In this document: positions 37,741-42,148 of the stretch, one piece after another
How positions within the stretch are numbered: the stretch's first letter is position 1
How the letters are laid out: each line of letters opens with the position of its first letter
Notes under the pieces: model-generated
What the model was told of the DNA's origin: nothing
What the model saw: the letters and a program-made list of their open reading frames with translations, nothing else
The model's database searches: none
Translations under genes and position numbers: made by a program
DNA from: Myxococcales bacterium
GTDB lineage: Bacteria > Myxococcota_A > UBA9160 > UBA4427
DNA length: 64,000 bases
Direction: 5' to 3'
NCBI GenBank assembly: GCA_022563535.1
Contig: JADFNE010000007.1
Span: forward strand, 1 to 64,000

Positions 37741-40626
37741 TTAGCTACAGCCGCTCGTACTACCGCAGTTGAGACACTTGTAGCACGCCCCGTTGCGAAT
37801 CATGATCGCACCGCAATCCATACAAGAAGGCGCGTCCGCCTGATTGACGAAACTCATTTGCGCGACCGTTCGACTCGCGACCGCCTCCGACCCCCCAGCG
37901 ACGGCACCCCGCGCTGGTTCGGCGATCGTGAGCCCGGTCGCGCCCCCCGAATCTCCCCCCGAATCAAAGGAGGAGGTATCGGCCTCACCCGAGAGGTAGC
38001 GATTCCCGAGATATCGGAACACGTAGTCGGTAATCGACTTGGCGATCGGGATGTTGCGATTGTTGGTAAAGCCCGAGGGTTCGAAGCGCGTGTGACTGAA
38101 CTTGTCCACCAACGTCCGCAGGGGCACTCCGTATTGCAATGCCATGGAGGTCATGGTCGCAATCGTATCCATGAGCCCCGAGACCGTGCTGCCCTCCTTT
38201 GCCATGCGCAGGAAGATCTCGCCGGGCATGCCGTTGTCGTACATGCCGATCGTGAGATATCCCTCGTGTCCCGCAATGGAGAACTTGTGGGTCAGCGCCT
38301 GGCGTTCGTCCGGAAGCTTGCGACGGTAGGGACTTGCCGTGCGTTGATTGGCGGTCGTCGTGGATCCGATCGCCTCGGTGATCGGGGTGACGTTGCTCTT
38401 CTCGTCGCGACTGGTATTCAGCGGCTGGGTTCGCTTGCTGCCGTCACGGTAGACCGCCAGCGCCTTGAGCCCGAGCTTCCAGCCCTCGACGTAAGCCGCC
38501 ACGACGTCTTCCGACGTGGCATCTTCGGGCAGGTTGACCGTCTTGCTGATCGCCCCGGAAAGGAAGGGCTGGATGGCGCCCATCATGCGCAGATGCCCCA
38601 TCCAATCTATCGAGCGCGTGCCGTTCTGCGCGCGAAAGGCACAGTCGAAGATCGACAGATGTTCGGGCTTGAGAGCGCTCGATCCCTCGATCGTCTCATG
38701 CTTGTCGATGTGAGCGAGAATCGCTTCGACCTCTTCCGCGCTGTAGCCAAGCTGGTCGAGCGCCATCGGCACCGTGCGGTTGACGATCTTGAGAAAGCCG
38801 CCGCCCACGAGTTTCTTGTATTTCACCAAAGCGATGTCGGGTTCGACGCCCGTGGTGTCGCAGTCCATCATGAAGGCGATGGTTCCCGTCGGTGCAAGCA
38901 CGCTGATCTGGCCGTTGCGGTACCCGAACTCCTTGCCCTTGGCCAATGCTTTGGACCAGGAGTCGAGGGATGCGGCGAACAGATCATCCGCCACGCCAAG
39001 CTTGGGAATTTCGCTCGCGGCGTCCGTGTGCATTCCAATGACGTCAATGAAGGACGTCGCGTTGGCCGGATACTGGGAAAAGGGACCCATGGCTTCGGCG
39101 ACTTCCGCACTGGTGAGATAAGCCTGACCCGACATTACGGAGGTGATCGCTGCAGCCAGGTTGCGCCCGGTGTCGCTGTCGTACGGCAAACCAAACGACA
39201 TCAGCAACGCGCCGAGGTTGGCGTACCCGATACCGAGCGGACGGTAGAGGTGGCTGTTTTCGGCGATCAACTCGGTCGGGTAGTCCGCGGGATCGACAAT
39301 GATCTCCATCGCCAGAATTGTCGTCGCCACCGCGGCACGGAAATCCTCGACCTGGAAGTTTCGCTCGTGAGCGTCTTCGGAGGTGAAGGTCATCAGGTTG
39401 AGACTGGCCAGATTGCAGGCCGTGTCGTCGAGGAACATGTACTCCGAACACGGATTGCTCGAGTTGATGCGCCCCGACGCCTTCACGGGATTCCAGCGAT
39501 TGATCGTCGTGTCGTACTGAATCCCCGGATCACCGCAGAGGTGAGTGGCATCGGCCATCGCATTCAGAACATCTTGGGCCTTGTAGGTTTCGACGACGTC
39601 GCCCGTAGTCACGGACAAGGTGTCATACGAGTCGCCACGCTCGGCTGCGCGCATGAAGTTGTCGTTCACCCGGACCGAGTGATTGGCGTTCTGGAAGAAC
39701 ACCGAGTCGTAGGCACCACCCGGGACGTTGAAGCCCCCGTCGTAACCATTGTCGATGAGCGACCAGGCCTTCTTCTCTTCCGACGATTTCGACTCGATGA
39801 AGTCCATGATGTCCGGATGATCGACGTTCAAAATCACCATCTTGGCCGCTCTGCGCGTTTTCCCGCCGCTTTTGATCACACCGGCAAACGCGTCGAAACC
39901 GCGCATGAACGACACCGGGCCCGAGGCCACGCCGCCGCCCTTGAGGGTCTCGTGCGAGGAGCGAATCTTCGACAGGTTGCTGCCGGCACCCGAGCCGCCC
40001 TTGAACAGCATCGCCTCGGTCTTGGCGAGGTCCATGATGGATTCCATCGTGTCTTCGACCGAATTGATGAAACAGGCGCTCGCCTGCTGGGCCGTTCCGT
40101 CCACGCCGAGGTTGAACCACACGGGACTGTTGAACGCGACCTTCTGATTCACGAGCAGATGGGTGAGCTCGTCGGCAAACGCCTGAGCATCGTCCTCAGA
40201 CCTGAAATAGCCCCCCTCGCAGCCCCATTCTCGGATCCTGCCGACCACGCGTCCGATCAGTTGCCGAACGCTGGTCTCGCGACCGGGGGTGTCCAGGTGT
40301 CCGCGAAAATACTTGGAGACCACGACGTTGGTTGCGAGTTGCGACCACTGCGCGGGAATCTCGACGTCGTTTTGCTCGAACACCGAGTCGCCGGATTCGT
40401 TGGTAATCTTGGCTGAGCGGATCTCCCATTCGACCGAGTCGAAGGGATCTTCTCCGGGGCGCGTGAAGTGACGGGTGATGGCGAGGCCGTGTTTCGCGTG
40501 GGGTCGGGTCTTAGAGGATGATTTCGATTTTCTCTGTATCCCTGCTGTCCTTGCCGAGCGCCCTTTGCGATTTGCTTTGGCAGCCTTGGCTCGCTTGCCA
40601 CGTCGTCCGCCCTCGGTGTCACCCAT
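37741..40626 (-). CDS. nrdJ: Vitamin B12-dependent ribonucleotide reductase (class II)
   Basis: Cytosolic adenosylcobalamin-dependent reductase of 961 residues. Visible pieces: VAFNSPVWFNLG and QQASACFINSVEDTMESI (active-site Cys), KGGSGAGSNLSKIRSS, SSNPCSEYMFLDDTACNLAS (Asn-x-Cys-x-Glu radical site), a VLAPTGTIAFMMDCDTTGVE loop and the C-terminal cysteine tail (PSCMDCGAIMIRNG, CYKCLNCGSTSGCS). The first 45 residues are an Arg/Lys-rich, probably disordered tail not typical of the family. ATG at 40626 with GGGGGAAAG upstream. It is preceded by an unusually long, structured leader (40627-41211). Confidence 0.96.
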   Translation of the reverse strand: MGDTEGGRRGKRAKAAKANRKGRSARTAGIQRKSKSSSKTRPHAKHGLAITRHFTRPGEDPFDSVEWEIRSAKITNESGDSVFEQNDVEIPAQWSQLATNVVVSKYFRGHLDTPGRETSVRQLIGRVVGRIREWGCEGGYFRSEDDAQAFADELTHLLVNQKVAFNSPVWFNLGVDGTAQQASACFINSVEDTMESIMDLAKTEAMLFKGGSGAGSNLSKIRSSHETLKGGGVASGPVSFMRGFDAFAGVIKSGGKTRRAAKMVILNVDHPDIMDFIESKSSEEKKAWSLIDNGYDGGFNVPGGAYDSVFFQNANHSVRVNDNFMRAAERGDSYDTLSVTTGDVVETYKAQDVLNAMADATHLCGDPGIQYDTTINRWNPVKASGRINSSNPCSEYMFLDDTACNLASLNLMTFTSEDAHERNFQVEDFRAAVATTILAMEIIVDPADYPTELIAENSHLYRPLGIGYANLGALLMSFGLPYDSDTGRNLAAAITSVMSGQAYLTSAEVAEAMGPFSQYPANATSFIDVIGMHTDAASEIPKLGVADDLFAASLDSWSKALAKGKEFGYRNGQISVLAPTGTIAFMMDCDTTGVEPDIALVKYKKLVGGGFLKIVNRTVPMALDQLGYSAEEVEAILAHIDKHETIEGSSALKPEHLSIFDCAFRAQNGTRSIDWMGHLRMMGAIQPFLSGAISKTVNLPEDATSEDVVAAYVEGWKLGLKALAVYRDGSKRTQPLNTSRDEKSNVTPITEAIGSTTTANQRTASPYRRKLPDERQALTHKFSIAGHEGYLTIGMYDNGMPGEIFLRMAKEGSTVSGLMDTIATMTSMALQYGVPLRTLVDKFSHTRFEPSGFTNNRNIPIAKSITDYVFRYLGNRYLSGEADTSSFDSGGDSGGATGLTIAEPARGAVAGGSEAVASRTVAQMSFVNQADAPSCMDCGAIMIRNGACYKCLNCGSTSGCS

Positions 40627-40861
40627 TAGTGCTTTCCCCCATTTCTATGCTTCATCGCTTCATCTTCAATGCTGATCGCTGATGTTTCCGCCGGACTGAA
40701 CAGAGTAACGCGGCCGACGATAATTTCTCTCCGGATCGATCTGTTTTTAGCTTTTGGCGTTCGCTTGATTTCTTGTTGTCCGTCTTGCTCGTTTGCTCTG
40801 TCCTAAATCAAAACATCGTTACTAACTGCGATACCTTTTTTTGCGGCGCACGAACCATTCA

Positions 40862-40911: not shown

Positions 40912-41060
40912 CGTGCTTGGTTTGCTTGGCTTGGTCTGGCTTGAACGGTTGGCTGGCGCTTGGTTGTGCTTGGTAGTCGGTTCCCGGTTGGCGCTGTTGT
41001 TGGAGCTGTTATTGGAGCTGTTGTTGGAGCCGATGTTGGCTCTTTCGTTGGCACTGGGTA
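40912..41060 (-). repeat. C/A-rich, G-poor leader tract with 12-bp tandem repeats
   Basis: On the plus strand this stretch is built from TTGG/GCTTGG words, and 40993-41040 holds four 12-base units (GCTGTTGTTGGA, GCTGTTATTGGA, GCTGTTGTTGGA, GCCGATGTTGGC). The nrdJ-sense RNA is thus rich in CCAA, CAAC and AACAGCTCC, poor in G and U, and likely unstructured. Such C-rich, G-poor leaders can be Rho-loading (rut) sites; that is inference. Confidence 0.7.
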
Positions 41061-41069
41061 GTCCGATTG

Positions 41070-41211
41070 CAGTGATGAGAAGGACGCCAAGTTTCCTTGG
41101 CGTCCTCGAGTAGGAGCAGGGTCCTCCGTCCCTATCTCAGACTCAAGTTCCTCCCCGCAACCACTCGGTTGCGACCCCCCCAGGCTACAGGAGGAACCTC
41201 ACATCCCCGTC
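41070..41211 (-). ncRNA. Candidate structured RNA in the nrdJ leader
   Basis: Starting just after the promoter at 41217-41245, the minus-strand RNA can fold as: an end stem GATG/GAG near 41205 with CTC/CATC near 41074; hairpin 1, GTTCCTCC with GGAGGAAC and an inner CGCAACC-GAGT-GGTTGCG; hairpin 2, GAGT...ACTC with AGGG...CCCT; hairpin 3, AGGACGCCAAG-GAAA-CTTGGCGTCCT (41081-41106), an 11-bp stem with a GAAA tetraloop. There are several GGA motifs in loops or linkers. It fits no riboswitch or ncRNA consensus that I can recall (cobalamin, TPP, 6S, RNase P and SRP were checked by eye). It could be a riboswitch-like leader of nrdJ or an independent small RNA. Confidence 0.5.
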
Positions 41212-41216
41212 TTTGC

Positions 41217-41245
41217 TTTGTACGACCATGACAGGCACGCGTCAA
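41217..41245 (-). promoter_or_regulatory. Sigma70-like promoter for the structured RNA/nrdJ
   Basis: Read on the minus strand, TTGACG (41245-41240) and TACAAA (41222-41217) are separated by exactly 17 bases. Expected transcription start is about 41210-41211, immediately before the end stem of the candidate RNA. It lies 216 bases after the npdG stop in the same direction, so nrdJ need not depend on npdG transcription. Confidence 0.6.
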
Positions 41246-41461
41246 CCGAAAAAACACAAAATATGGGGGTTGGATCGACCTACAACCACAACTGCTTGAG
41301 TTTCAAGGCAAAGGTCGGCAAAAAAACTTCGACCCTCCTCGCGAGCGGAAAGCGTGACGCAGATATCGGCCTCAAAGGCTCGAATTCGTGGTGATTTCCC
41401 GGCCTGCTCCGCGCGGGTCTGGTGCAACCGCTGAGCGTCGCCCTGGTGGGTCCTGGAATCT

Positions 41462-42148
41462 CTAGACTTCAGGCAGTCCGGTGAAGCGGATGCCGACTCC
41501 CTCGGGAAGCTTGTAACGAATGTTGATCCCGATCATCAGGGCCGTCATCTCTTCGACGATTCTCGCGTTGGAGAGCCCGCCGCCGTTGAGGCCGCGCAAC
41601 CCGGGGATCAGGCTGCACAAGCCGATCACGGTATCGCGCGCGTCCTTGGGCCCCGAAACCACGACGTCGCAGTCGACCTCGCGGTCGAGATCTCGCAAGC
41701 GATGGGCCGAAACATTCTGAAAGGCACTCACCACCGCGACGCCGTCGGGTACCAGCGACTTCACCAACTCGGCGCAGGAACCCTGCCAGATGCCGAGGGT
41801 GCGGACAGCGCCGTCGCCCACCGCCGTGGCCAGGGGAACTGCCATGGACACGAGAATCTGCCCATCGGACAGCGACTCCCGGATGCCCTTGACGGTTGCC
41901 GCCGTGTGTTCGAAGGGCACCGAGAGAATCACGATCGCCGCGCGCTTCACGGCCTCTGCATTGCCGCAGCCCGACACAGGCGCCCCGGGCACGGCTGACG
42001 TCACCTCTTCTGCAGCAGCAATTGCGCGTTCGGCTTTTCGCGAACCGATTACGACCGGGCGGCCCGCCTTGGCAAAGCGAAGTGCGAGACCGAGACCCTG
42101 GTCTCCCGTCCCACCCAGTATTGCAATTGCATCATTTTGACTGGCCAT
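41462..42148 (-). CDS. npdG: NADPH-dependent F420 reductase
   Basis: Transfers hydride between NADP(H) and coenzyme F420; 228 residues, the family norm. The Rossmann start AILGGTGDQGLGLALRFAKA and VVIGSRKAERAIAAAEEV are the NpdG/Fno hallmark, followed by VILSVPFEHTAATVKG and the C-terminal ALMIGINIRYKLPEGVGIRF. It implies that the organism makes or uses F420, a cofactor patchy among Gram-negatives; no F420 biosynthesis gene (fbi/cof) is in this window. ATG at 42148. It is divergent from the IMPase-like gene at 42273. Confidence 0.9.
   Translation of the reverse strand: MASQNDAIAILGGTGDQGLGLALRFAKAGRPVVIGSRKAERAIAAAEEVTSAVPGAPVSGCGNAEAVKRAAIVILSVPFEHTAATVKGIRESLSDGQILVSMAVPLATAVGDGAVRTLGIWQGSCAELVKSLVPDGVAVVSAFQNVSAHRLRDLDREVDCDVVVSGPKDARDTVIGLCSLIPGLRGLNGGGLSNARIVEEMTALMIGINIRYKLPEGVGIRFTGLPEV

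What the first reader, a model, noticed from the sequence alone, without database searches (positions are those of the whole stretch)
41070..41245. Undescribed structured RNA with its own promoter upstream of a B12-dependent nrdJ
On the minus strand a 17-base-spaced TTGACG/TACAAA promoter is followed at once by about 140 bases that fold as a closed multibranch structure: an end stem, two complex hairpins, and an 11-bp perfect hairpin with a GAAA tetraloop at 41081-41106. It lies in the 835-base leader of nrdJ, an enzyme that needs adenosylcobalamin. It lacks the GCCACTG box of cobalamin riboswitches and any other motif I can recall. A riboswitch-like leader, a processed leader RNA or an independent small RNA would all be new. 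The structure was read by eye, so base pairs are a model.
Basis: partly seen in the sequence, partly recalled or inferred. Interest (0 to 1): 0.62.

Follow-up and report, generated by a model that had tools for sequence, protein, structure and literature searches.

The report
New structured leader RNA of nrdJ
In one class of uncultured Myxococcota, the messenger RNA for the vitamin-B12-dependent enzyme that makes DNA building blocks begins with a previously undescribed, evolutionarily conserved folded RNA of about 140 bases, which probably sets how much enzyme is made but whose trigger is unknown.

Summary
Confirmed and extended. Window 41070-41210 (minus strand) encodes a real structured RNA. 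Homologues occur in 71 of 80 genomes of the same order and 8 of 11 of the sister order, but not confidently in the other ~288 Myxococcota genomes sampled. nrdJ lies downstream on the same strand in all 61 loci examined with enough flank. The architecture is a closed four-way junction: P1 plus three hairpins, P2-P4. Covariation is strong: 17/47 pairs on an unfitted alignment, and 41/46 across both orders on a model-fitted one. The most conserved unpaired feature is a run of 5-7 G in the P2 loop. The RNA starts right behind a promoter carrying two NrdR-box-like palindromes 31-32 bp apart, so it is probably the 5' end of an NrdR-controlled nrdJ mRNA. Rfam 15 has no match. The same genomes carry ordinary cobalamin riboswitches elsewhere, so the lack of a B12 box is not a detection failure. 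No conserved terminator, Rho-like C-rich tract or Shine-Dalgarno-sequestering partner was found downstream, and the leader behind the element is unconserved and 30-1344 nt long. Best reading: a new family of cis-acting nrdJ leader RNA, riboswitch-like or factor-binding. Ligand, mechanism and transcription are untested.

The parts
41286..41301 (-). upstream NrdR-box-like palindrome (ACTCAAGCAGTTGTGG)
   Evidence: second box at 32-bp centre spacing in most own-order loci, 31 bp in the sister order; nrdR gene found in 12/12 genomes
41254..41269 (-). downstream NrdR-box-like palindrome (CCCCCATATTTTGTGT), 8 nt before the -35
   Evidence: match score 17 of 22 for the window; conserved position in most loci; consensus recalled from knowledge, box pair about three helical turns apart per PMC9110341
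41217..41245 (-). sigma-70-type promoter TTGACG-17-TACAAA
   Evidence: hexamers at the same distance from the RNA in relatives; predicted start near 41210; no transcript data
41069..41211 (-). conserved structured RNA element (whole model match)
   Evidence: R1 142.8 bits (a building sequence); R2 120 bits; related sequences in 71/80 own-order and 8/11 sister-order genomes
41199..41209 (-). P1 closing helix, 5' strand
   Evidence: pairs with 41070-41080; replaced by an unrelated complementary pair (CAAGGA/UCCUUG) in the sister order
41070..41080 (-). P1 closing helix, 3' strand (CTCATC...)
41147..41197 (-). P2 hairpin (strands 41197-41183 and 41162-41147) with loop 41182-41163 holding the GGGGGGG run
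   Evidence: 13/15 and 14/15 pairs change on both sides; apical part of P2 formed (at least 6/7 pairs) in 48/49 sequences
41107..41145 (-). P3 hairpin with apical loop around ACGGAGGA
   Evidence: the GGAGGA loop is kept outside two genera of the own family, lost in g10 and g11
41081..41106 (-). P4 perfect hairpin, GAAA loop
   Evidence: 99.8-100% of cells paired, 5/10, 7/10 and 8/10 pairs with changes on both sides
40635..40640 (-). poly-G Shine-Dalgarno-like site of nrdJ (GGGGGA)
   Evidence: GGGGG before nrdJ in 23/34 loci, before proC in 1/46
37741..40626 (-). nrdJ, class II (adenosylcobalamin-dependent) ribonucleotide reductase
   Evidence: PF02867 1.3e-133, PF08471 4.8e-23, PF12637

Best explanation
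The element is a new family of cis-acting leader RNA of nrdJ. RNA polymerase starts at about 41210 from a promoter that NrdR represses when dATP is high. The first ~140 nt of the transcript fold into a four-way junction (P1-P4) that presents an invariant G-rich P2 loop. This folded 5' end then sets how much nrdJ mRNA is completed, survives or is translated, by binding a cell factor: a small molecule (riboswitch-like; adenosylcobalamin or a nucleotide are the natural candidates), a protein, or the ribosome. SHOWN by comparison: the structure, its class-wide conservation, its exclusive placement before nrdJ, the shared promoter and box pair, and the absence of a Rfam relative. INFERRED: NrdR control, transcription start, regulation in cis. 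UNKNOWN: the ligand or partner and the regulatory step. My split within this reading: ligand-sensing about half; protein or ribosome binding or mRNA stabilisation the other half.
For: Homologues in 71/80 genomes of the order and 8/11 of the sister order. Covariation: 17 of 47 pairs, 52 cells against 17.9 in shuffles and 4-13 when slid, on an unfitted MAFFT alignment; 34/46 and 41/46 pairs on model-fitted alignments. nrdJ downstream on the same strand in all 61 loci checked. Two NrdR-box-like sites at constant 32- or 31-bp spacing next to the -35; nrdR in 12/12 genomes. In the genus the block from promoter to P1 (79-85% identical) ends at P1, and only a short SD/start block aligns before the coding region. 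No Rfam family. Own-order losses are mostly genomes with fragmentary or missing nrdJ.
Against: No transcript or expression data. No conserved expression platform: SD sequestration, intrinsic terminators and C>G tracts downstream are at chance level or not general. Distance from element to start codon varies from about 30 to 1344 nt, unusual for a classical riboswitch. The association with a single gene and a single class gives no ligand clue. One family (f9: G037, G044) keeps the box and promoter but has lost the element, so it is dispensable.
Confidence: 0.75

Rival explanations
1. A true riboswitch of a new class: the four-way junction binds adenosylcobalamin or a nucleotide and switches nrdJ expression, adding a second sensor to NrdR.
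For: P1-closed multi-helix domain at the 5' end of an mRNA for a cofactor-dependent, allosterically regulated enzyme; strong conservation of specific unpaired bases.
Against: No expression platform found; only one gene type; the invariant bases lie in hairpin loops rather than in the junction; genomes already use normal cobalamin riboswitches.
Confidence: 0.35
2. Translational control through Shine-Dalgarno mimicry: the P2 loop (GGGGGG) and P3 loop (GGAGGA) look like ribosome-binding sites, and the nrdJ ribosome-binding site is itself poly-G. The element acts as a standby or decoy site for the 30S subunit, or for a protein that also binds the nrdJ start (for example autoregulation by NrdJ).
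For: GGGGG before nrdJ in 23/34 loci, against 1/46 proC genes of the same loci and 2/42 other window genes; P2 G-run in all loci aligned; P3 GGAGGA in both orders.
Against: P3 loop motif is lost in two genera (g10, g11); G-runs are common in GC-rich DNA; start codons were chosen by a heuristic.
Confidence: 0.2
3. An independent small RNA, co-controlled with nrdJ by NrdR, released by processing at P4/P1 and acting on other mRNAs through the G-rich loop.
For: Own promoter, compact closed fold, unconserved spacer of variable length to nrdJ.
Against: Never found convincingly away from nrdJ; P4 has no U-tract, so no intrinsic terminator.
Confidence: 0.15
4. A divergent cobalamin riboswitch.
For: nrdJ needs adenosylcobalamin; AGCCAGG in some sister-order P2 loops resembles the start of the B12 box (recalled).
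Against: No RF00174 match even at E up to 5 although RF00174 is found elsewhere in 10/10 genomes tested; different helix layout.
Confidence: 0.03
5. Chance fold, IS remnant or DNA-level conservation only.
For: GC-rich region with many possible pairs.
Against: Compensatory changes far beyond shuffled and slid controls; about one copy per genome at one place; no relatives in the viral contigs by pattern.
Confidence: 0.02

Closest known systems
Cobalamin (adenosylcobalamin) riboswitch, RF00174
   Same: Multi-helix leader RNA; tied to B12 metabolism through its gene.
   Different: No model match, no B12 box, other architecture; the same genomes carry ordinary RF00174 copies elsewhere.
2'-deoxyguanosine riboswitches (purine riboswitch variants)
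   Same: Known riboswitch reported in the context of deoxynucleotides and ribonucleotide reductase (PMC8872408, PMC12268651; found by search, abstracts only).
   Different: Purine riboswitches are three-way junctions with a conserved core (recalled); here a four-way junction and no Rfam match to any purine model.
nrdJ motif / other comparative-genomics orphan RNAs (Weinberg et al. 2017, recalled, paper not held)
   Same: I recall a candidate RNA named after nrdJ from that study.
   Different: No match to any of the 4227 Rfam 15 families; I could not confirm that this motif is in the library or read the paper, so identity by name is not excluded with certainty.
NrdR regulon promoters (paired NrdR boxes)
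   Same: Two boxes about three helical turns apart over the promoter of an RNR gene, as in PMC9110341.
   Different: Here an NrdR-type promoter is combined with a conserved structured RNA at the transcript's start.

Membership tests
Cobalamin riboswitch RF00174 | Match to the family model above gathering score | tested here: not met
   Searches (window; 15 diverse loci): none; positive control in the same genomes
Any Rfam 15 RNA family | Match at gathering score | tested here: not met
   best sub-threshold matches at E about 1 or worse
Conserved structured RNA (covariation-supported) | Compensatory changes above shuffled and slid controls | tested here: met
   (unfitted)
NrdR regulon | Paired palindromic boxes 31-32 bp apart at the promoter of an RNR gene | tested here: met
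   a few loci scored poorly because the scan picked another TTGAC or loop
NrdR regulon | nrdR gene in the genome | tested here: met
   12/12 above cut-off
NrdR regulon | Binding of NrdR to the boxes | not testable with these tools
   needs a binding assay
Riboswitch | Ligand-dependent structural change | not testable with these tools
   needs in-line probing or SHAPE
Riboswitch | Recognisable expression platform (terminator, SD sequestration) | tested here: not met
   terminator-like 1 observed, 0.9 expected; duplex z-scores near 0; C>G tract in 26/61
CsrA-bound leader | CsrA present wherever the GGA loop is present | tested here: not met
   CsrA found in 6/10 genomes; absent from G007, G039, G046, G089, which have the element

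The most novel reading that the evidence does not exclude
A new riboswitch class dedicated to class II ribonucleotide reductase, which senses adenosylcobalamin or a (deoxy)nucleotide and gives nrdJ a second, RNA-level sensor behind the dATP-sensing NrdR promoter.
Probability: 0.35. Interest if true: 0.85.

Novelty: new variant of a known kind. Interest (0 to 1): 0.62.

Why it matters
Ribonucleotide reductase sets the supply of DNA precursors, and its known general transcriptional control is through NrdR. A conserved RNA domain locked to nrdJ across a whole bacterial class points to a second control layer on this enzyme. It is compact and can be tested directly in vitro with a short list of candidate ligands, and it gives a covariance model for annotating an uncultured clade.

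Tried and rejected
Rfam at gathering and permissive thresholds: nothing. Intrinsic terminator behind P4 or in the leader: no U-tract, chance level. Rho-type C>G tract: striking in the window's own leader but in only 26/61 loci. SD sequestration by P1, P2 or P4 strands: z near 0. CsrA: missing in 4/10 genomes with the element. Local CGCAAC/GUUGCG hairpin instead of the long P2: it has no compensatory change, and a local stem of 5 or more pairs is possible in 17/49 loci, against 48/49 for the long P2. Distant relatives elsewhere: only three weak matches (E 0.003-0.09) in the other Myxococcota classes; nothing convincing at 15 nrdJ leaders of other classes; none in viral contigs by pattern; 35 genome-contig pattern hits, all titled Myxococcota, Deltaproteobacteria/Proteobacteria or unnamed bacterium. 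Papers on an nrdJ RNA motif: none held beyond unrelated uses.

Full report
Observation. On the minus strand, TTGACG (41245-41240), a 17-nt spacer and TACAAA (41222-41217) are followed directly by a sequence that folds far better than shuffles (201 nt, -93.3 kcal/mol, z -5.25, 0/200). The 3' hairpin 41106-41081 with a GAAA loop is as described. The 835 nt quoted is the proC-nrdJ gap; the predicted leader is about 584 nt. nrdJ (37741-40626) is class II RNR by Pfam.

Conservation. A blastn search of relatives found the sequence in 28 of 61 genomes, all 28 among the 30 of the own family. A covariance model from 20 sequences found it in 71 of 80 genomes of the order, mostly once per genome. Own-order genomes without a hit are mostly those whose nrdJ is missing, partial or at a contig edge. 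The exception is family f9 (G037, G044), where box and promoter remain but the element is gone. The second model with filters off confirmed 7 loci at E of 4e-9 or better, and the third, which includes those sequences, found 8 of 11 genomes. The remaining ~288 Myxococcota genomes gave three weak matches only. Names from a pattern scan: uncultured Myxococcota/Deltaproteobacteria, including UBA9160 and TMED88. That the class is GTDB UBA9160 is my inference.

Structure. Numbered from 41211 downwards: P1 3-13/132-142, P2 15-29/50-65, P3 67-82/91-105, P4 106-116/121-131. On the plain MAFFT alignment 95.2% of cells pair, 17 pairs change on both sides and 52 cells do so, against 17.9 in shuffles and 4-13 in slid controls. 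On model-fitted alignments (which lean towards the structure) 34/46 and 41/46 pairs covary. In the sister order P1 is rebuilt from other sequence (CAAGGA/UCCUUG), a multi-base compensatory replacement. RNAfold and RNAalifold on the own family prefer two small hairpins at the top of P2, but the long P2 is formed in 48/49 sequences and a local stem is possible in 17/49. The P2 loop always holds 5-7 consecutive G; its remainder varies in length. The P3 loop (GGAnGGAGGAC) is kept in both orders but lost in genera g10 and g11.

Context. Two NrdR-box-like palindromes sit 32 bp apart (31 bp in the sister order), the nearer about 8-9 nt from the -35 in most loci. This agrees with the two boxes about three helical turns apart bound by dATP/ATP-loaded NrdR in PMC9110341. 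nrdR is present in 12/12 genomes. nrdJ follows on the same strand in 61/61 loci; proC precedes in nearly all own-order loci. In the genus, the promoter-plus-RNA block is 79-85% identical and ends at P1; behind it only a ~50-nt block around the SD and start aligns before the coding region (80-82%).

Mechanism. NrdR control and start are inferred from sequence. The constant neighbour and 5' position argue for action in cis on nrdJ. A conserved platform is missing: no terminator, no general C>G tract, no SD pairing. The spacer length is free. That fits a domain that works by itself at the 5' end (co-transcriptional, mRNA stability, or factor binding) as well as a riboswitch with a varied platform. 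One lead: the nrdJ SD is poly-G in 23/34 loci, against 1/46 for proC in the same loci, resembling the invariant G-run of the P2 loop; a shared binding partner would explain both. This is a correlation with heuristic start calls, not a test.

Known families. RF00174 is excluded by model, with positive controls in the same genomes. No other Rfam family matches. A motif named after nrdJ is recalled from a 2017 survey that is not held here; identity with it could not be checked directly. CsrA is not general.

Verdict. A real, undescribed (as far as these libraries show) structured leader RNA family. Existence is near certain; cis-regulatory function probable; riboswitch activity possible.

Noticed in passing
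G000 contig C122:1295-1438 (L058): A second nrdJ with its own copy of the element in the window's assembly; its NrdJ is 87-89% identical to genus g29 of another family, so probably a binning contaminant rather than a paralogue.
   Followed up: partly
upstream of proC in the related loci; window proC 41462-42148 (-): Most proC genes of the clade show GCTAGnnT about 8-12 nt before the ATG and no Shine-Dalgarno site, suggesting leaderless transcription.
   Followed up: no
window 40635-40640 and nrdJ starts of 34 loci: nrdJ uses a poly-G ribosome-binding site far more often than neighbouring genes, and frequently GTG starts.
   Followed up: partly
window 40930-41060 (-): C-rich, G-poor repetitive stretch (CCAACAACAGCTCCAA...) right behind the element, rut-like, but not general in relatives.
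   Followed up: partly
L120 (G088), about 1090-1130: Sister-order genome in which only the P2 hairpin core (CAGGGGGGGCUUUCGGG) is recognisable, hinting that P2 is the functional heart.
   Followed up: no
10 genomes of the class: One or two ordinary cobalamin riboswitches per genome, not at nrdJ in those tested; their target genes were not examined.
   Followed up: no
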